Shown here one piece after another: positions 50,320 to 61,246 of a DNA stretch of 64,000 bases. The stretch's first letter is position 1; each line of letters opens with the position of its first letter. Source of the DNA: Pseudohongiella acticola (GTDB lineage: Bacteria > Pseudomonadota > Gammaproteobacteria > Pseudomonadales > Pseudohongiellaceae). The notes below the pieces were generated by a model that saw nothing but the letters and a program-made list of their open reading frames with translations, was not told where the DNA came from and searched no databases. A program made the position numbers and the translations under genes. Location of the stretch: the NCBI RefSeq assembly GCF_001758195.1, contig NZ_MASR01000001.1, positions 2,604,001-2,668,000 on the forward strand, given 5' to 3'.

Positions 50320-52458
50320 TCAGGGCAACGAGAATACGTAAACAGCGTTACCGTCTGGCGGCGGCGCCAGATCGGGCGCTACCGCGCGTGGCACCATGCG
50401 CGGACTGGTACCCCCGTTTGCCGTGGTTACAGCGATGTACTGCTTGCCGTCGATTGTGAAGGTCAGTGGGTGGCCCTGTACGGCGGTGCCCAATCGCGTT
50501 TCCCAGACAATCTCGCCATTGCTGACATTGAATGCTCGGAAGCGTCGATCCAGATCCCCGACAAAGGCAAGGTTTCCGGCCGTTGACAGCACACCCGTTA
50601 TAAAGGATGCGCGCTGTTCGTAACTCCAGAGTTCGGTCAGTGTGCTGACGTCATAGGCGGCGAGTTTGCCCAGGTTGCCATTGGTGCCAGGCATCTCATG
50701 AAAGCGACGGTTAGAAGCGAGTCCCCCTGACCCGGCCACCAGTTCCACCGCCCGCGCCCGGTTATCAAGACAGGTCTGACTCAAGGGCGCGATCAGGGCG
50801 CCGCTGGGCTCATGGTAGCTCATGGCATGCCAGTTCTTGCCCCCTGCGCTGCTGGGGCAGGCATTGACCCACTCATCAAGACGCGCATTGATGATATCGT
50901 CGCGATAGGTCACAGCGCCGGTTTCCGGGTCGATATGAGTAAACACATTCTGATACATGGTTTCGGTGTAACCCAGAAATTCACCGGTATCGCGATCGTT
51001 CTTCCACAGAATGCCGTGTTTGCCGATGGACAGCACCAGTTTTTGACCGTCACGGTCGACCAGCACGCGTTCAAAGACTTCATCCAGGTCCAGCGCTTCG
51101 CCGGGGACATGTTGGAAGTGCCAGACCAGTTCGCCGGTATCAGCGTCCAGTGCCAGTGTGGAGTTGGTGTACAGACCGGCATCGTGGATTGACATATGGC
51201 GGCTGGGCGGTGCCCAGGGTTTGGCCTGAGCCACGCCCCAATAGGTGAGATTTGACTCCGGGTCGTAGCTGCCGGTGATCCAGGTTTCACCGCCGGCGCG
51301 GAAAATATTGTCCAGGCCACCCCAGGTGTCACCACCGGTTTCGCCGGCCTTGGCGATGGTGTCAAAGCGCCAGGCCAGTTCGCCGGTGTCAGCATCATAG
51401 GCGCTGATATAACAGTCCTCGGGAATATAGCTGGCGCAGCCGGCAAGCCCAACGATAACTTTGTCGCCTGCGATCAGGGGGCCGCTGGAATTGGCAAAAC
51501 CTTTGTCGCTATCCGCGATAACAACTTCCCAGACAGGCTCACCGGTGCTGGCATCCAGCGCCAGCAATCGCGCATCAGTGGTCGCCTGAATGATCTTGTT
51601 GTTGTAGATGGCAATGTTGCGCATGTCTTCACCAGTGGCCGGGCCGGCGGCGTGCTCCCAGATTAACTCGCCATCGCGCGCGTTCAGGGCCTGCACAACG
51701 TTGCCCGGGTTGATCAGAAACATGGTGCCGTTGTAGACGATGGGCGCGGGTTCCGAATCACCAACGTGCATGTTCCAGACCCATTCAAGGCGCAGGTCAT
51801 TGACGTTGTCCAGGTTGACCTGATCCAGCTCACTGTAGCTCCATGCCTGTGGGTTGCCGCGCCACATCAACCAGTCTTCAGGTGAGGGACTGGCAAGTTG
51901 TGCAGCACTGACTGGGGTGAAGTCGGCAACAGTACCGGCGACGGTGACCCCGGTGACGGCGCTATCCTGATCGGCTCCGATGCTGGCAACGGCTGCTGAG
52001 CGGGGCATGTCATTCAGTGCCGTGCCGGAATCGGCGGTCAGCGGCGCAGTACCAGCGTCAGCACCATTAACCTGCAGAATGTGTGCAGTAATGTTGACGT
52101 AGTCTGATGTCTGCAGGGCCTCGTTGCCACCGGGCGGCATGCTGGTGCTGATCAGCTGGATCAGGGCGCTGCTGGTCTGACCACCCCAGCGCGTAACAAA
52201 AGCTTCACCACTCAGCGCAGGTGCGGCCGGGCCGCCGCTGAGGTCGGCTGCGTGGCAGGATGCGCAATAGGCGGCATAACCGGCTGAGCCCAGGCTTGCC
52301 TGGTTTACAGAGTAGGTAGTGGGTGAGTTGGCATCGGCGACATCCGTTGCGGGCACGCCATCGATGCCACTGCAGGCACTCAATGTCAGGGAAATGGTCA
52401 ACGTGGCCAAGGGTGTCAGCCGAAGGCGTGAGACGGGGTGGTCGATAGCGTATGGCAT
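50320..52458 (-). CDS. PQQ-dependent quinohemoprotein dehydrogenase, lipoprotein with N-terminal cytochrome c
   Basis: 712 residues from ATG 52458. The N-terminus [29 protein letters not shown] has a lipobox with Cys29 followed by Ser, so outer-membrane anchoring is likely. Cytochrome c site CASCH at 65-69, then an eight-bladed PQQ propeller from about 190: [31 protein letters not shown], repeated blade Trp-docking motifs such as [14 protein letters not shown], and [25 protein letters not shown]. Most quinohemoprotein alcohol dehydrogenases carry the heme domain at the C-terminus; here it is N-terminal. Substrate not predictable. It is divergent from the hybrid kinase gene by 74 nt, suggesting a regulatory relation. 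Confidence 0.85.
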
Positions 52459-52532
52459 GTTGGGATCCGTTTGTTTTATTGTTAGGTTAAACTCTATATG
52501 ATTCGGGGTGTTGAGTACATAACGGGCTGCAA

Positions 52533-55500
52533 ATGCGGGCAAAGGTACGGATGCAACAAAAACACATATGGAACATTGTTCTGATCTGGCTGAGTTGTTT
52601 GCTGGCATCAGGCGTCTCGGCGTTGGAACTGGAAAGTTTTCCCGGCGGCCTCGTGCCCGGCAGTGAAATGATTCTGTTCGAAGATGAAGGTGCCGAGCTC
52701 GATTTTGAACAGGCGAGAGCGCAGCTCAGCATCGCCGGATTACCCTGGGTAGCCCCGGGGCAGCCAAACCTGGGGTATCGCCGCAGCGCACTCTGGGTGA
52801 GGGTGGATCTCGATAACCGGTTCGAGGAACCCAGGGACTGGGTTGCCTATATCGGCTTTCCCAATCTTGATCGAGTCGATTTCTATTACCAGGACGCAGC
52901 AGGTGAGTGGCAAACCCACGCCGCGGGCAGTGCGCTGCCATTTCGCGCCCGGCACCTGTTGCACCGCAGTATCAATTTCGAATTCCAGGTGCTTCCGTCA
53001 GAAACCATGTCCATCTACTTTCGTGTCGAAAGCACGGGGTCATTGCAATTCCCGTTGGCGCTGGCCAGCGCCTCATTTTTTGCCTCTGAAGCGCAGCGCA
53101 CCCTGTTTACATCAGGTCTGTATTACGGACTGATGCTGATGATTGCCATTTACAGTTTCACGGTATGGTTTACCAGCCGGGAGTCAGGTTTTCTGTATTT
53201 TGCCTTGTTGGTCGTGTTTGGCAGCCTGTACTCCCTTTCTGCACAGGGCCTGGCATATCAGTACCTGTGGCCGGAGGCGCCGGACTGGGCGAACAGGGCC
53301 ACCAGTGTGTTCAGCCTGATGGCTAATGTCGCGGGCATTTTATTTGTTCGTTCTTTCCTTAATCTGAAGTCGCTGGACCGGCGACTCGAACTCGTCGCCC
53401 GGGCTTTCCTGGTGATGGCAGTGCTGGGTGTTGTCATCAGCCTGTTTGCCGACTCAGGCCTGGTCAATCGCATGGCACTGCTTTATGCCGCATGCCTGAC
53501 CGTGTTGGTAACACTGTCAGGGCTGCTGGCCAAGCGGCGCCTGGTCAGGGCGGCACGTTTTTTTGTGTCGGCGTGGACAATACTGCTGGTGGGCATTCTG
53601 CTCGAACTTCTGCAGCGCCTGGGCGTCATTATTCCCCCATTACTGGCCTACAACGGTATCCAGATTGCCACACTGGCAGCGGTAACCGTATTGGCGCTCG
53701 GTTTGAGTGACCGGTTGCAGAGCATGATGGAAGGTTATAAAGCAGCGCAACAGGACCTGTTGCGGGCAAACCAGTTAAAAATTGATGCCCTGCAGCAAGC
53801 CGATAATGTCAAAGAAGAGTTTATTGCCAATGTGTCGCACGAATTGCGCACGCCACTGACGGGCATCATCGGACTGGCGGAAATCATGCTGGCTGATCGC
53901 TCCAGCGACCTGAATGCATCACAGCGGGAAACGTTGACTCTGATGAAGGTCAGCGCGCAACGTTTGTCGAGTCTGGTAAATGATGTAATCGATTTTTCTG
54001 CCATCAAAAACGGTCATCTTGCCTTGAGCAAACGCGACATTGACTTGAAACAGGTCTGCGAGCTTGTGGTCCGCATGACCCGCCCATTGATCGGTGACAA
54101 ACCGATAAAGCTGGTTGAAAAATATCCAACGGCCAGACTTATCGTTGAGGGCGATGAAGACAGGTTGCAACAGGTACTGTTTAATCTGGTAGCCAACGCC
54201 GTCAAATTTACGCCTCATGGCAGTGTCACCATTGGTGTGGAGGTGCTGGAGCTGGATGTGAGGGTGTCGGTACGTGATACCGGGATTGGTATTTCGACCA
54301 CTGAGCAGCAGAATATATTCAAGCGCTTTTACCAGATTGATTCCGATGAGGCGCGGCAGGCGGGCGGTACCGGGCTGGGCCTGTCCATTTCCCAACGGCT
54401 GCTGGAATTACATGAGTCCGAGATCATATTGCGCAGTACGCCCGGCGAAGGCTCGCTGTTCTACTTTGATTTGCCGCTGAAAAAATCGCTGCCGGAAGGC
54501 AAAAAGTCCGACAGGGCGGCCTCCGGCGAGGGCGCAGCGACAAAAGGTGATGAGGTGGTTGCGAAGCCGGCCGGTCTGACCGCTGCGCTGCAGGCGACCG
54601 GTATGAGTGTTGACCGACGCAGCAACCAGGGTCCGTTAAATGGCGACGACAACAGTGCCGAAAATGACCCGGCTGGCGGCAACATCCATCGGCAAGAGGA
54701 AAGAGGCAAGATTCTGGTCGTTGATGATGAGTATCTGAATCTGCGTATAGTGGAGTCGCACCTGGCGGATCGCTACCAACTCACCACCGCACTCAGTGGG
54801 GCTGAGGCACTGGAAATACTGAGCAACGAGAAGCCTGACCTTATCATTCTGGACCTGATGATGCCGGTGATGACCGGATACCAGTTCTGTCAGATTGTAC
54901 GCAAACGATACGATTCAGACGAGCTGCCGATTGTGATCCTGACTGCCAAAAACCGTGTGGAAGATCTGGTCAAAGGGCTGAGCCTGGGTGCGAACGACTA
55001 TATAACAAAACCGTTCAGCAAAGAAGAGTTGCGTGTCCGCATAGACAAACAGTTCGAGCTGCTCAACCTGACCCATGTCAAGCGCGACAACCAGCGCCTG
55101 AGCTGGCAGTTGCAGCGTTACGAAGAAAGTGAAAAGCGGTTGCGAGACCGTGAGCAAAGACTGGCGGCGCTGCTGGATGTGACCGGTGATCCACTGCTGG
55201 CGATCGATGAGACGGGTGTTGTTATCTTTATCAATAGCGCCGCTGAAGAACTGTTACAGGTCACTGCTGACTCGGTTTTACATCAATCGGTAAACCGTAT
55301 ATCAGATGAATTGGTGCCTCGCTCCCCGGCACTGGCAGACGCGGTACACTTCCCGTTTAGCGAAGACCGCATCTCCTGTCCCGGCAGCACTGAGTATTTC
55401 GATTTCGAACTGGAGTCGACGCGAGGGCGCTTCTGTTTGTTAACCATGCGTCAGGTAGACCAGGAATTCTATTTGATGGTCTTCGAGACCGGTGTGCCCG

Positions 55501-56057
55501 AAGCGCGCGTTGTCGATGAACAAGACGAAGCACCGGGCTCATTAAGCCTGCCCCAGATTGTCGAAGAAATAAATCGTAATGTTGAGCGCACGCAGTTGCT
55601 GGGCGAATATCTGTCGCAGATAAAGCCTGAGGATTTGCACAAGCACAAGGATCTGGTCGAAGAGTTGGGGCATATCGACAAGTTGATCAATCATCTGTCT
55701 GGTACGCTGGTGCCAGATGACGACGATGACAGTGAGCTTAAGTACCGTGAGGCCTTAGTCAAGGTGATGCAGGATTGCCACTATTACTGGCAGAAAGTGA
55801 CCGGTGAGTCGATTATTGATCTCGCTGAGAAAAGCCGTATCTGGAGCGTCAGTATTGACAACGGGCGTTTGCGAACGCGATCAATGAATCGCTATCTGTC
55901 ACTGGACAAGCTGCCTTCAAATCCAAGGTGGCGCCAGGTCGCCCGTACAGCCTACTTTGTTCTTTCCAAAGTGTCATCCGACGAGGAGGCGAGGAAAGCA
56001 CTGGAGTCTTCAGTGGCAAGACTGCAGGAAATAGTCGAACAGAAGGCGCTCAACTGA
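52533..56057 (+). CDS. 7TM-DISM hybrid sensor histidine kinase/response regulator
   Basis: 1174 residues. Signal sequence (about 12-30), a periplasmic 7TMR-DISMED2-like domain (35-185, [38 protein letters not shown]), seven membrane helices (about 190-390), HisKA with [16 protein letters not shown] (His near 437), HATPase ([40 protein letters not shown]), linker, receiver domain (about 727-845, [10 protein letters not shown], Asp near 775), a PAS-like domain (about 880-990) and an unassigned C-terminal domain (about 1070-1174). It lies between two PQQ dehydrogenases, divergent from one and 37 nt before the other, so it may regulate both. Exogenous ligand not known. Confidence 0.88.
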
Positions 56058-56094
56058 CAATATAGAACACGGCGCCTATAATAATGAGATCAGT

Positions 56095-58374
56095 ATGAGA
56101 GCGTCCTTCCGTAGACTCGCAGCGCTAGTTGCTGCCACCTGCAGTTTGTCCGGTGCCGGCACGCCGGCGTTAGCGCAATACGGTGCCCCAGACGGTGAGT
56201 GGCATACCTGGGGTGGCGATCACGGCTTTACCCGCTACTCCGCACTGTCTCAGATTAATGCAGACAATGTCACCGAACTTGAGGTTGCCTGGCGCTGGCG
56301 TGCGCTGCCGCTCGGTAACAGGGCAGACAGAAATCTGAAAGCGACCCCGTTAATGATTGATGGGGTGCTTTACGTGCCGTCCGGTCAGCATCAGGTGGTG
56401 GCACTGAATGCCGCCACCGGGCAGGAGATCTGGCGTTACACGCCCGACCCCGCCAGTGTTGCCGAGCGCGGTCTGGGTCTGGGCAGCCGGTCTCTGGCAT
56501 ACTGGCGTGACGGCGAGCAGGCGCGCCTCTTCCACAATACACTCGACGGTCGTTTGCTGGCGATTGATGCGCACACCGGACTGGCAGATCCGGCGTTTGG
56601 CAATAATGGCACGGTACTGTTGCGGGAGGGTCTGTATCCCGATGGCAGCGCCGCCGAGTCGGTGGGTTCGTCGTCCCCGCCGGCAGTGGTAGGCGATGTT
56701 GTGGTGGCGCAGGTTGTCGGTACAATTACCGCACCCAATCAGGAAGCAACACCGGGCCATATTCGTGGTTATGATGTTCGCACCGGCGAGATGGTGTGGC
56801 GCTTCAATACCATTCCCCAACCCGGCGAGCCTGGTCACGACAGCTGGCACGGAGACACCTGGCGCCATACGGGCAATGCCGGGGTCTGGTCCATGATGAG
56901 TGTCGATACCGAAACCGGCTATGTCTATTTGCCGGTAGAGGCTGGCTCCAATGACTTTTATGGAGGGCACCGTCAGGGGGACAATCTGTTTTCACAAAGC
57001 CTGGTCTGCCTGGATGGCCGCACTGGCGAACTGGTCTGGCACTATCAATTGACGCATCACGGCCTGTGGGACTACGACCCACCAGCGGCGCCGATTCTGG
57101 GTGACATCGTGGTTGACGGTGAGCGCATCAAGGCAGTCACGCAGCTGACAAAGCAGGGCATGTCATTTGTCTTCGACCGGCTCACTGGCGAGCCGGTCTG
57201 GCCAATTGACGAGCGTGAAGTGCCGTCGAGTGAAGTGCCTGGTGAACGGGTTTCGCCGACGCAGCCATTTCCAAGCTTGCCGGAGCCCTATCTCAGTCAG
57301 GGTTATGATGAGGACGAATTGCTTGATTTTACGCCAGCGTTGCGCGCAGAAGCGCTGGAGATAGCGGGGCGCTATGTGCGCGGTCCCATATATACACCGC
57401 CGACACCACTGCGAGAGGGGGGCACCCAGGGTACCTGGGTCAATCCCGGCTACCAGGGCGGTTCCAACTGGAACGGCGGGGCATTCGATCCCGTCAATGG
57501 CCACATGTTTGTTCCGCTACGTAAGGCGCCAATGGCGGCTGCATTGCTGACGCCGGATCCCGACCAGACCAATTGGCGGTACCTGAGAGCGCCGTCGGTG
57601 TTTATACAGGGACCGCGTGACCTGCCCATCGTGCGCCCACCCTGGAGCCTGATTACAGCAACAGACATGAACCGCGGCCGTCATACCTGGTCTCGCAGTA
57701 TCGGCCCCGCCTCTGACTACATTCGTCAGCATCCTGATCTGCAAGGGCTTGACCTGGATTTTGACAACATGGGTCACCCCATGATCAGGCCATCACCGCT
57801 CGCCACCGCCACCCTGTTGTTCCTCGCAGAAGCCGGACATTTAAGTGGCGACCCGGGCGGCCCGATGTTTCGTGCCTATGATAAAAATACCGGCGAAGTG
57901 GTCGCCGAGATCGAACTGCCGGCGAAAGCATCGGGTGCACCGATGACATACTTCCATAAGGGCTATCAGTATATTGTGATTGCCGTGGCAACCGCAGAAC
58001 ATCCGGCAGAGTTGGTGGCGTTGGCATTGCCCGGTGCTGTTACTCAGTACGCCCAGCCAGGCCCCGACTCTCTCCGTGGCCCTGGCGCTGACACAGCCGG
58101 CGTCCCGGTGCCGGACGTCACGCTGACGAGCGCGGAACGTGCGGCAGCGGCACAACAATTCGCTTTAATGTGTGCGACCTGCCATGGTGAGCAGGGTCGT
58201 GGCATCAGTGGAGGGTCGGCGCCGGCATTGACGAACCCGAACGGGTTGGCACAGATACGCAACATCATAGAGAGTGGCGGCGTGGAAATGCCGGCGTTTG
58301 GTTTGCAACTGGACGATACCGATGTTTCGTTACTGGCCCGTTACGTTGTCATGCTGTCCGTGCCCGGCCAATGA
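56095..58374 (+). CDS. PQQ-dependent dehydrogenase with C-terminal cytochrome c
   Basis: 759 residues. Signal peptide ends near PALAQYG. The propeller (about 35-640) begins EWHTWGGDHGFTRYSALSQINADNVTELEVAWRWR and includes DVRTGEMVWRFNTIPQPGEPGHDSWHGDTWRHTGNAGVWSMMSVDTETGYVYLP, close to membrane-type glucose/quinate dehydrogenases but without their N-terminal membrane helices. The heme site CATCH is at about 693-697, with axial Met in VEMPAFG. A soluble periplasmic quinohemoprotein. It follows the hybrid kinase by 37 nt in the same direction and may be co-transcribed. Substrate unknown; sugars, polyols or alcohols are possible. Confidence 0.88.
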   Translation: MRASFRRLAALVAATCSLSGAGTPALAQYGAPDGEWHTWGGDHGFTRYSALSQINADNVTELEVAWRWRALPLGNRADRNLKATPLMIDGVLYVPSGQHQVVALNAATGQEIWRYTPDPASVAERGLGLGSRSLAYWRDGEQARLFHNTLDGRLLAIDAHTGLADPAFGNNGTVLLREGLYPDGSAAESVGSSSPPAVVGDVVVAQVVGTITAPNQEATPGHIRGYDVRTGEMVWRFNTIPQPGEPGHDSWHGDTWRHTGNAGVWSMMSVDTETGYVYLPVEAGSNDFYGGHRQGDNLFSQSLVCLDGRTGELVWHYQLTHHGLWDYDPPAAPILGDIVVDGERIKAVTQLTKQGMSFVFDRLTGEPVWPIDEREVPSSEVPGERVSPTQPFPSLPEPYLSQGYDEDELLDFTPALRAEALEIAGRYVRGPIYTPPTPLREGGTQGTWVNPGYQGGSNWNGGAFDPVNGHMFVPLRKAPMAAALLTPDPDQTNWRYLRAPSVFIQGPRDLPIVRPPWSLITATDMNRGRHTWSRSIGPASDYIRQHPDLQGLDLDFDNMGHPMIRPSPLATATLLFLAEAGHLSGDPGGPMFRAYDKNTGEVVAEIELPAKASGAPMTYFHKGYQYIVIAVATAEHPAELVALALPGAVTQYAQPGPDSLRGPGADTAGVPVPDVTLTSAERAAAAQQFALMCATCHGEQGRGISGGSAPALTNPNGLAQIRNIIESGGVEMPAFGLQLDDTDVSLLARYVVMLSVPGQ

Positions 58375-59439: not shown

Positions 59440-59925
59440 ATGTCAACGTCAGCCAATACACCCGTTGTTACAGGATCGTCGGCGGTTTCCCGTCCCGCCG
59501 CCGCACCCAGCGCCAGTGCTCTCAAGCATTTTGAGCATCTGTTGCAGTTCGAGACCGATTGCTGGGACGTGCACCATGCCATCAGCAATGCTCGACAGGA
59601 TTTTGTCCTGCTGGATGTGCGAGGTGAGGATTTGTTTACGCGGGGTCACATCGCCGGCGCAGTCAATTTGCCACACACACGTATCAATGCAGACAGCCTG
59701 AGCGTATTTTCCGGCGCTTCACTTTTTGTTGTCTATTGCGCGGGACCGCATTGCAATGGCGCCGACAAGGCTGCCGTCAGGCTGGCCCGACTGCAGCAGC
59801 CGGTCAAAAAAATGATAGGTGGCATCACCGGCTGGCTGGACGAGGGGTTCAGTCTGGCATGTATGGACCCAAACAGAATCGAACCCTATTCAGGAAAACA
59901 GCATGACAAAGCAGGACAACTTTGA
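59440..59925 (+). CDS. Rhodanese-domain protein
   Basis: 161 residues from ATG 59440 (MSTSANTPVV) with AGGAGG 4 nt upstream. An in-frame ATG at 59359 lies within the upstream promoter region and is not used. The rhodanese fold spans about 45-150: FVLLDVRGEDLFTRGHIAGAVNLPH with the active-site Cys100 in VVYCAGPHCNGADKAA, then MIGGITGWLDEGF. The first 35 residues are Ser/Ala-rich and likely disordered. Such proteins move sulfane sulfur. It overlaps the next gene by 23 nt. Confidence 0.88.
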   Translation: MSTSANTPVVTGSSAVSRPAAAPSASALKHFEHLLQFETDCWDVHHAISNARQDFVLLDVRGEDLFTRGHIAGAVNLPHTRINADSLSVFSGASLFVVYCAGPHCNGADKAAVRLARLQQPVKKMIGGITGWLDEGFSLACMDPNRIEPYSGKQHDKAGQL

Positions 59926-61246
59926 TTTCCAGCCTACCCTCGAGGGACGAACCATTACGCTGCGGCCGCTGCAGCCCGATGATCTTGAATCACTGTACGC
60001 GGCGGCGAGCGACCCGCTGATCTGGGAACTGCACCCGGACCCGCAACGCTATCAACGTGAAGCTTTTGAGGCCCGGTATTTTAATGGGGCGGTCACCGCG
60101 GGCAGCGCCCTGGTGGCCATCGATAACGCCTCCGGTGAAATCGTTGGCTGTTCCCGTTATTACGAGTGGGACCCGGTGGCAGAAGAAGTGGCCATCGGCT
60201 TTACTTTTCTGGCACGCAGTCGCTGGGGTGGGGCTACCAACCGTGAAATGAAGATGTTGATGCTTGATCATGCCTTCAAGTGGGCCAGACGAGTCTGGTT
60301 CCATATTGGCAAGGACAACCTGCGATCGCGTCGCGGCACTGAAAAAATCGGGGCGCGCTTCTCGCATGAGAGCGAGAAGGAAATCAACGGGCAGTTGCAC
60401 GAATACGCCTACTATTATGTTGACCGGCCACCCGCATCGGTGTCCGAGGTACTGGCTTTCAGCGAACAGGTCGCGCGCGATGCCGGTGCCTTGATGCTGG
60501 CAGAACTGCAACGTGATGAAGGGCCGGCAGCGCATTTCAAACATGACGGGCAGGAACTGGTCACCGAGGCGGATATCAAGGTCGACAAACTGATCTGTGA
60601 CGCCATTCGGGCGCGTTACCCGACGCACCAGATACTGGCCGAAGAGTCAGCGCCGGACCTGACACAATTGAGTGAACGGGAAGGGCCACTGTGGATAATC
60701 GATCCGATTGATGGCACCGTCAATTATGCACATGGCCATCAACATTCAGCCGTGTCCATTGCCTGGGTGGTTGACGGTGTCGTGCAGAGCGGCGTGGTCT
60801 ACAATCCCTACAACAATGAAATGTTTGCCGCCGCCCGGGGCAAGGGCGCAACGCTGAACGGAGAGTCGATACACGTAGCGCAGAAAACCGACCTGCGCCG
60901 CGCGCTATTCGCGACCGGGTTCCCCTACATCAAGAAGGACATGGCGCTTCTGGTCAGGCGGGTGGGATTGATGCTGGCGCATTGTGCTGATCTGCGGCGC
61001 ATGGGGTCCGCAGCGCTGGACATCTGCTGGGTGGCCGCCGGTCGTCTCGATGTGTACTACGAAAACCTGAGTGTGTGGGATTTTGCCGCCGCACAACTTA
61101 TTGCCATTGAAGCCGGTGCTCGTTACGGACATTTTCTGCCGGTTCCTGATGGTGTCAACCCGGTTTTCCACAACAAGAATATTCTGGTCAGCAATGCCAC
61201 CTTGTACAATAAGGCCAGAGACATTCTGCTGCAGGCTGAGGACTGA
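59903..61246 (+). CDS. GNAT acetyltransferase fused to an inositol-monophosphatase-type phosphatase
   Basis: 447 residues from ATG 59903 (MTKQDNFDFQPTLEGRTITLRPLQPDDLESLY), with CAGGA upstream; the 28-residue extension is not family-like. N-terminal RimJ-type GNAT domain (about 15-175: ITLRPLQPDDLESL, VGCSRYYEWDPVAEEVAIGFTFLARSRWGGATNREMKMLMLDHAF, LRSRRGTEKIGARF). C-terminal IMPase/SuhB-like domain (about 180-440) with GQELVTEADIKVDKLICDAI, HQILAEES (Glu247), WIIDPIDGTVNYAHG (Asp267, Asp270) and VWDFAAAQLI (late metal Asp). All phosphatase metal residues appear kept. Overlaps the rhodanese gene. Substrate unknown. Confidence 0.85.
   Translation: MTKQDNFDFQPTLEGRTITLRPLQPDDLESLYAAASDPLIWELHPDPQRYQREAFEARYFNGAVTAGSALVAIDNASGEIVGCSRYYEWDPVAEEVAIGFTFLARSRWGGATNREMKMLMLDHAFKWARRVWFHIGKDNLRSRRGTEKIGARFSHESEKEINGQLHEYAYYYVDRPPASVSEVLAFSEQVARDAGALMLAELQRDEGPAAHFKHDGQELVTEADIKVDKLICDAIRARYPTHQILAEESAPDLTQLSEREGPLWIIDPIDGTVNYAHGHQHSAVSIAWVVDGVVQSGVVYNPYNNEMFAAARGKGATLNGESIHVAQKTDLRRALFATGFPYIKKDMALLVRRVGLMLAHCADLRRMGSAALDICWVAAGRLDVYYENLSVWDFAAAQLIAIEAGARYGHFLPVPDGVNPVFHNKNILVSNATLYNKARDILLQAED

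What the first reader, a model, noticed from the sequence alone, without database searches (positions are those of the whole stretch)
50320..58374. Two unlike PQQ quinohemoproteins flanking a 7TM-DISM hybrid kinase
One PQQ enzyme is a predicted lipoprotein with an N-terminal heme domain, divergent by 74 nt; the other is soluble-type with a C-terminal heme and starts 37 nt after the kinase. The arrangement suggests that a periplasmic signal sensed by the DISM domain controls two dehydrogenases with different electron routes. I know of no described system with this exact layout.
Basis: partly seen in the sequence, partly recalled or inferred. Interest (0 to 1): 0.6.

Follow-up and report, generated by a model that had tools for sequence, protein, structure and literature searches.

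The report
DNA-binding membrane kinase beside two PQQ dehydrogenases
In marine Pseudohongiella bacteria, two differently built periplasmic PQQ dehydrogenases flank a membrane sensor that carries its own DNA-binding domain (the ChiS type first found in the cholera bacterium's chitin sensor), so it probably switches its neighbours on or off without a partner protein.

Summary
A lipoprotein PQQ enzyme with an N-terminal heme (P0001), a 7TMR-DISM hybrid kinase and a signal-peptide PQQ enzyme with a C-terminal heme (P0003) lie as described. The kinase start is probably 52551, so the divergent gap is 92 nt, not 74.

The arrangement is conserved. P0001 lies divergently beside the kinase in 23 of 23 orthologous loci with a visible upstream flank. 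P0003 follows the kinase in 13 of 13 Pseudohongiella-type loci and 0 of 12 sister-clade loci.

The last ~100 kinase residues, its most conserved part and unknown to Pfam, are a ChiS-family DNA-binding domain: E = 2e-24 to PDB 7KPO; predicted fold TM 0.91, 1.3 Å; [quoted passage not shown]

So the kinase is most likely a transmembrane transcription factor acting on its neighbours. Regulation of both enzymes, the signal and the substrates remain inferred. A 42-nt footprint in the divergent gap is the candidate control region, but it includes the kinase's own −10. The domain family and its pairing with 7TMR-DISM were already published; the pairing with PQQ enzymes appears new.

The parts
50320..52458 (-). 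P0001: PQQ quinohemoprotein lipoprotein, N-terminal cytochrome c + PQQ propeller; start 52458 (ATG conserved in relatives), lipobox LSAC|SG with Ser at +2 (not Asp)
52252..52266 (-). CASCH heme c motif of P0001; C, C and H invariant in 23 orthologs; conserved Met in MPPGG at 52126-52140 is the likely axial ligand
51070..51096 (-). Active-site segment ALDLDEVFE of P0001 (Asp aligned with the WD of type II ADHs; Asp at +2), near invariant in 23 orthologs
52476..52517 (.). 42-nt conserved footprint in the divergent gap: TTATTGTTAGGTTAAACTCTATATGATTCGGGGTGTTGAGTA. Contains a -10-like TATGAT for the kinase; ACTC and GAGT lie 22 nt apart
   Evidence: 81% mean pairwise identity in 13 loci against at most 63% in coding flanks
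52551..56057 (+). P0002: 7TMR-DISM hybrid histidine kinase with C-terminal DNA-binding domain; probable start 52551
52665..53066 (+). 7TMR-DISMED2 periplasmic sensor domain (residues 45-178)
   Evidence: 111 bits
53106..53714 (+). 7TMR-DISM seven-transmembrane domain (residues 192-394)
   Evidence: 126 bits
53811..54482 (+). HisKA + HATPase_c kinase core (VSHELRTP, N and G boxes intact)
54711..55043 (+). Receiver domain with phospho-acceptor Asp774 (ILDLMMP)
55158..55295 (+). PAS domain
   Evidence: 27 bits (cut-off 22.6)
55737..56042 (+). ChiS-family DNA-binding domain (helix-sheet-helix), residues about 1069-1170
56095..58374 (+). P0003: PQQ quinohemoprotein, membrane-GDH-like propeller without the membrane anchor, C-terminal cytochrome c, Sec signal peptide (ALA|QYG)
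58171..58185 (+). CATCH heme c motif of P0003; conserved Met in EMPAFG at 58285-58302
57067..57078 (+). WDYD active-site motif of P0003, invariant in 13 orthologs

Best explanation
The kinase is a membrane-anchored, DNA-binding regulator of the ChiS type. Its DISMED2 domain and seven helices sense a periplasmic signal, perhaps a substrate or product of the PQQ enzymes. The kinase-receiver module sets its phosphorylation state, and its C-terminal ChiS-family domain binds DNA in or near the 92-nt divergent region. This controls the N-heme lipoprotein dehydrogenase (P0001) on one side and its own operon with the C-heme dehydrogenase (P0003) on the other, with no separate response regulator. Shown: gene layout, domain content, DNA-binding domain by sequence and predicted fold, conserved synteny, and a conserved footprint in the gap. 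Inferred: actual DNA binding, sites, sign of regulation, ligand, substrates, and electron routes (outer-membrane-tethered cytochrome versus soluble periplasmic cytochrome).
For: C-terminal domain matches the ChiS DNA-binding domain 7KPO at E=2.1e-24. AF2 model of the domain, pLDDT 88, shows helix-hairpin-helix and matches 7KPO with TM 0.91 of the target, 1.3 A rmsd, the only hit below E=0.001. R1116, R1120, R1132 and R1134 fall on ChiS R1074, K1078, R1090 and R1092, mutants of which lose DNA binding; N1110 falls on R1068, which the authors report as poorly conserved (PMC8092284). This domain is the most conserved stretch of the kinase, 92-98% identity even where the sensor is near 45%. Same order HK-REC-PAS-DBD as ChiS. 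P0001 beside the kinase in 23/23 and P0003 in 13/13 testable loci of its clade. Kinase-P0003 gap is 0-60 nt or overlapping in relatives and no promoter there is conserved, which suggests one operon. 42-nt footprint at 81% identity in the gap. A pqqE gene is present.
Against: No binding or expression data. The footprint includes a -10-like TATGAT oriented to the kinase, so it may simply be the kinase promoter; in the sister clade only that promoter core (TTGAAC-17-TATGAT) is recognisable and P0001 has a separate upstream region, in several loci about 2 kb away. P0003 is missing beside the kinase in the sister clade. P0001 also occurs without the kinase in other genera. A CTGACA-17-TATAAT match precedes P0003 in the window itself, though it is not conserved.
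Confidence: 0.6

Rival explanations
1. The kinase binds DNA but mainly controls itself (and so P0003 as a co-transcribed gene) or other nearby genes such as the pirin and CitMHS-type transporter; P0001 is a neighbour under separate control.
For: The footprint holds a kinase -10 element. In the sister clade the P0001 operon has its own upstream region apart from the kinase promoter. The pirin-transporter pair is also usually conserved beside P0001.
Against: The P0001-kinase neighbourhood is kept in 23/23 loci across two clades although the genes between them change, whereas the pirin-transporter pair is absent from some of these loci.
Confidence: 0.2
2. The two enzymes are not co-regulated: P0003 has its own promoter and joined the locus only in Pseudohongiella; only P0001 answers to the kinase.
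For: P0003 absent beside the kinase in 12/12 sister-clade loci, replaced in most by an esterase; an 11/12 promoter match lies just before it in the window.
Against: That promoter match is absent from relatives; kinase and P0003 abut or overlap in several species.
Confidence: 0.13
3. Ordinary phosphorelay: the receiver passes phosphate to a distant Hpt and response regulator and the C-terminal domain no longer binds DNA.
For: Intact HisKA, HATPase and receiver Asp; no Hpt or response regulator next to the gene, so a distant partner cannot be excluded.
Against: The C-terminal domain is the most conserved region and keeps four of five critical basic residues, not expected of a relic.
Confidence: 0.07

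Closest known systems
ChiS of Vibrio cholerae (Klancher et al. 2021, PMC8092284; PDB 7KPO)
   Same: Membrane hybrid kinase with HK-REC-PAS-DNA-binding domain in the same order; DNA-binding domain homologous by sequence and predicted fold
   Different: Sensor is 7TMR-DISMED2 plus 7TM here; neighbours are PQQ dehydrogenases, not the chitin programme; DNA site and ligand unknown; R1068 equivalent is Asn
7TMR-DISM proteins with a ChiS-family domain catalogued in PMC8092284 Fig. 5A
   Same: Combination of 7TMR-DISM with the ChiS-family domain, at the C terminus
   Different: None linked there to a target or to PQQ enzymes in the text read; whether these very orthologs are in its Data Set S1 was not checked (supplements not available)
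PedS2/PedR2 and the ped/exa clusters of Pseudomonas (PMC6115532, PMC12997753)
   Same: Membrane sensor kinase encoded with, and switching between, two PQQ alcohol dehydrogenases
   Different: Separate LuxR-type response regulator PedR2; HAMP-type sensor; the switched pair are two closely related ethanol dehydrogenases
Quinoprotein group of PDB 4CVB, 7WMD, 4MH1 and 22VI (alcohol and sorbose dehydrogenases)
   Same: Closest solved relatives of the P0001 propeller, E about 1e-80 to 1e-94; aligned Arg, Trp, Asp and Lys kept
   Different: P0001 adds an N-terminal cytochrome c and a lipoprotein anchor
Membrane-bound PQQ glucose/quinate/shikimate dehydrogenase family (TIGR03074)
   Same: Best curated model for the P0003 propeller (374 bits)
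   Different: Below the 832-bit cut-off; no N-terminal membrane domain; C-terminal cytochrome c added

Membership tests
ChiS-family DNA-binding domain | Sequence homology to ChiS 1024-1129 | tested here: met
   hmmsearch E=2.1e-24 against 7KPO over 102 residues
ChiS-family DNA-binding domain | Helix-sheet-helix fold | tested here: met
   AF2 pLDDT 88 with H55-62, E68-70, E73-75, H77-83; TM 0.91 to 7KPO
ChiS-family DNA-binding domain | Critical basic residues R1068, R1074, K1078, R1090, R1092 | tested here: met
   Four of five kept as R1116, R1120, R1132, R1134; the fifth (N1110) is the position reported as poorly conserved
ChiS-family DNA-binding domain | Domain at the extreme C terminus of the protein | tested here: met
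   Residues about 1069-1170 of 1174
Transmembrane transcriptional regulator (ChiS-like) | Transmembrane sensor plus DNA-binding domain in one chain | tested here: met
   7TMR-DISM_7TM 126 bits and ChiS-family domain in one ORF
Transmembrane transcriptional regulator (ChiS-like) | Binds DNA and regulates transcription from the membrane | not testable with these tools
   Needs EMSA, ChIP and reporters
PQQ quinohemoprotein (P0001) | PQQ propeller with catalytic Asp and a covalent heme c site in one chain | tested here: met
   PF01011 196 bits, CASCH and a Met, Asp in ALDLDEVFE; cofactors themselves not testable
Type II quinohemoprotein alcohol dehydrogenase (P0001) | Heme c domain C-terminal to the propeller | tested here: not met
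   Cytochrome is at residues 103-177, before the propeller
TIGR03074 membrane-bound PQQ dehydrogenase (P0003) | Score above the curated cut-off and N-terminal membrane domain | tested here: not met
   374 bits against 832; match begins at profile position 150; soluble signal peptide
Ped/Exa-type two-component control of PQQ enzymes | Cognate response regulator gene beside the kinase | tested here: not met
   No such gene among the neighbours

The most novel reading that the evidence does not exclude
A single membrane-anchored DNA-binding kinase sits between two unlike periplasmic quinohemoproteins and sets their balance directly from the membrane in response to a periplasmic signal tied to their substrate or electron load: a one-protein counterpart of the two-protein PedS2/PedR2 switch.
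Probability: 0.3. Interest if true: 0.65.

Novelty: new member of a known kind. Interest (0 to 1): 0.42.

Why it matters
ChiS-type membrane transcription factors have few known targets beyond chitin use and natural transformation in Vibrio. This locus offers a second, unrelated physiological role, periplasmic oxidation by PQQ enzymes, with the candidate regulator, targets and control region within 8 kb, and cultured relatives (Pseudohongiella nitratireducens, Pseudohongiella sp. O18) that hold the same three genes. It also shows that a hybrid kinase without a visible response regulator can hide a DNA-binding domain that Pfam does not detect.

Tried and rejected
(1) Pfam at E up to 10 on the C-terminal domain gave only chance hits; the identity came from the PDB profile search. 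(2) The promoter-like site before P0003 (56054-56082) was rejected as a general feature because relatives lack it. (3) A regulon scan with the 42-nt footprint found only the locus itself at up to 3 mismatches, so no wider regulon could be proposed. (4) The same operator was sought upstream of both kinase and CHRD-P0001 in the sister clade; only the kinase promoter core is shared with the footprint. (5) An extra Asp two residues after the catalytic Asp is present in both enzymes (LDLD, WDYD), as in lanthanide enzymes such as PedH (PMC5487730), but I did not use it as evidence for lanthanides because, from memory, membrane glucose dehydrogenases also carry it. (6) Phage, viral and metagenome collections were not relevant. 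(8) A published ChiS site sequence was sought in two papers without a consensus being found. (9) The notion that an N-terminal heme on a PQQ enzyme is itself unheard of was not pursued as novelty: homologs with the same order occur in other genera, and from memory polyvinyl-alcohol dehydrogenase is described with that order; literature searches here did not settle it.

Full report
OBSERVATION. P0001 (50320-52458, minus) is a lipoprotein with an N-terminal cytochrome c (CASCH) and a PQQ propeller. P0002 (plus) is DISMED2-7TM-HisKA-HATPase-REC-PAS. P0003 (56095-58374, plus) has a signal peptide, a full PQQ propeller and a C-terminal cytochrome c. Both enzymes keep the aligned active-site Asp and heme motifs across orthologs. 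The kinase probably starts at 52551, because close relatives lack the first ATG and the second is preceded by AAAGGT. The divergent gap is then 92 nt.

CONSERVATION. Searches compared 56 relatives. In the window's genus the order P0001-kinase-P0003 is constant. The search for related loci supplied 26 named orthologous loci and identified the genus as Pseudohongiella. P0001 is divergent beside the kinase in 23 of 23 loci where that side is visible: 11 Pseudohongiella-type and 12 from a sister clade, in which a CHRD-domain gene and sometimes an M28-type peptidase lie between. P0003 follows directly in 13 of 13 Pseudohongiella-type loci and in none of the 12 sister-clade loci, most of which have an esterase and a pirin instead. 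More distant genera have P0001 without the kinase. So P0001 is the older partner and P0003 a genus-level addition.

THE MISSED DOMAIN. Per-window identity along the kinase shows that residues about 1076-1150 are its most conserved stretch (0.94-0.98 in genus, 0.92-0.97 in sister clade), comparable only to the phospho-acceptor motif. Pfam has no model for it. A profile of 15 copies hits one PDB sequence, 7KPO, at E=2.1e-24. Foldseek names 7KPO as the DNA-binding domain of ChiS from Vibrio cholerae. The AF2 model (pLDDT 88) shows the helix-sheet-helix and superposes on 7KPO (TM 0.91 of target, 1.3 A, E=8e-9); no other PDB chain is below E=0.001. Klancher et al. (PMC8092284) found R1068, R1074, K1078, R1090 and R1092 essential for DNA binding in ChiS. 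The alignment puts N1110, R1116, R1120, R1132 and R1134 there, and the one changed position is the one they call poorly conserved. They also list 7TMR-DISM among domains joined to the ChiS-family domain, so the architecture as such is not new.

CONTROL REGION. Across 13 genus loci the gap holds a 42-nt block (52476-52517) at 81% mean pairwise identity against at most 63% in the coding flanks; it is unique in the genome at up to 3 mismatches. It contains TATGAT oriented to the kinase. In the sister clade a conserved TTGAAC-17-TATGAT lies at the matching place in most loci, so part of the block is the kinase promoter. The rest (TTATTGTT, ACTC and GAGT 22 nt apart) may be an operator, which is inference. 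Kinase and P0003 are 0-60 nt apart or overlapping in relatives with no conserved promoter between them, which fits one operon.

MECHANISM. Most likely a membrane-bound transcription factor: periplasmic signal to DISMED2-7TM, to the kinase-receiver state, to DNA binding near the divergent gap. From memory (Klancher 2020, not read here), phosphorylation lowers ChiS binding; whether that holds here is open. P0001, anchored by lipid (Ser at +2 suggests the outer membrane, from general knowledge), and P0003, soluble, would pass electrons to their own fused cytochromes by different paths; this is inferred from sequence. A pqqE gene over the family cut-off is present in the genome, so the cofactor is probably made.

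COMPARISON. It works like ChiS in mechanism and like PedS2/PedR2 (PMC6115532) in physiology, where a kinase and a separate regulator switch two PQQ dehydrogenases. It is a member of the ChiS-family DNA-binding proteins by every feature testable here. It is not a Ped-type two-component pair (no response regulator gene beside it), P0001 is not a type II quinohemoprotein ADH by layout, and P0003 is not a TIGR03074 member by score. No paper found links a ChiS-family domain to dehydrogenases (a search limited to the open library).

VERDICT. A sound, well-conserved gene group whose interest lies in the hidden DNA-binding domain rather than in the two unlike enzymes alone.

Noticed in passing
L064:6616-18308 (G000:C1 about 1849115-1860807): A second ChiS-domain 7TMR-DISM kinase in the same genome is followed by a 1513-aa cadherin-like protein, another PQQ dehydrogenase and a cytochrome c gene: a possible second kinase-PQQ pairing.
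   Followed up: partly
L105-L133, L136, L140, L147 (for example L110, L113): A distant family of ChiS-domain kinases (about 30% identical) in OM182, SAR86 and other Gammaproteobacteria is conserved next to an AAA_22 ATPase and a serine acetyltransferase gene, with no PQQ enzyme.
   Followed up: partly
window 59819-61246: One ORF joins a GNAT acetyltransferase and an inositol-monophosphatase-family domain; other Pseudohongiella loci have them as two genes with a 207-aa gene between (L083), which suggests a gene fusion.
   Followed up: no
G004 and G010: Two genus members holding P0001, kinase and P0003 have no pqqE match above the cut-off; incomplete genome or dependence on outside PQQ.
   Followed up: no
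L046:7748-7830: In one Pseudohongiella the footprint's GTTGAGTACACA end is repeated several times in tandem toward the kinase.
   Followed up: no
L085 and L100: Public MAG labels Rhodoferax and Klebsiella pneumoniae on contigs that belong to this gammaproteobacterial group: probably mislabelled records.
   Followed up: no
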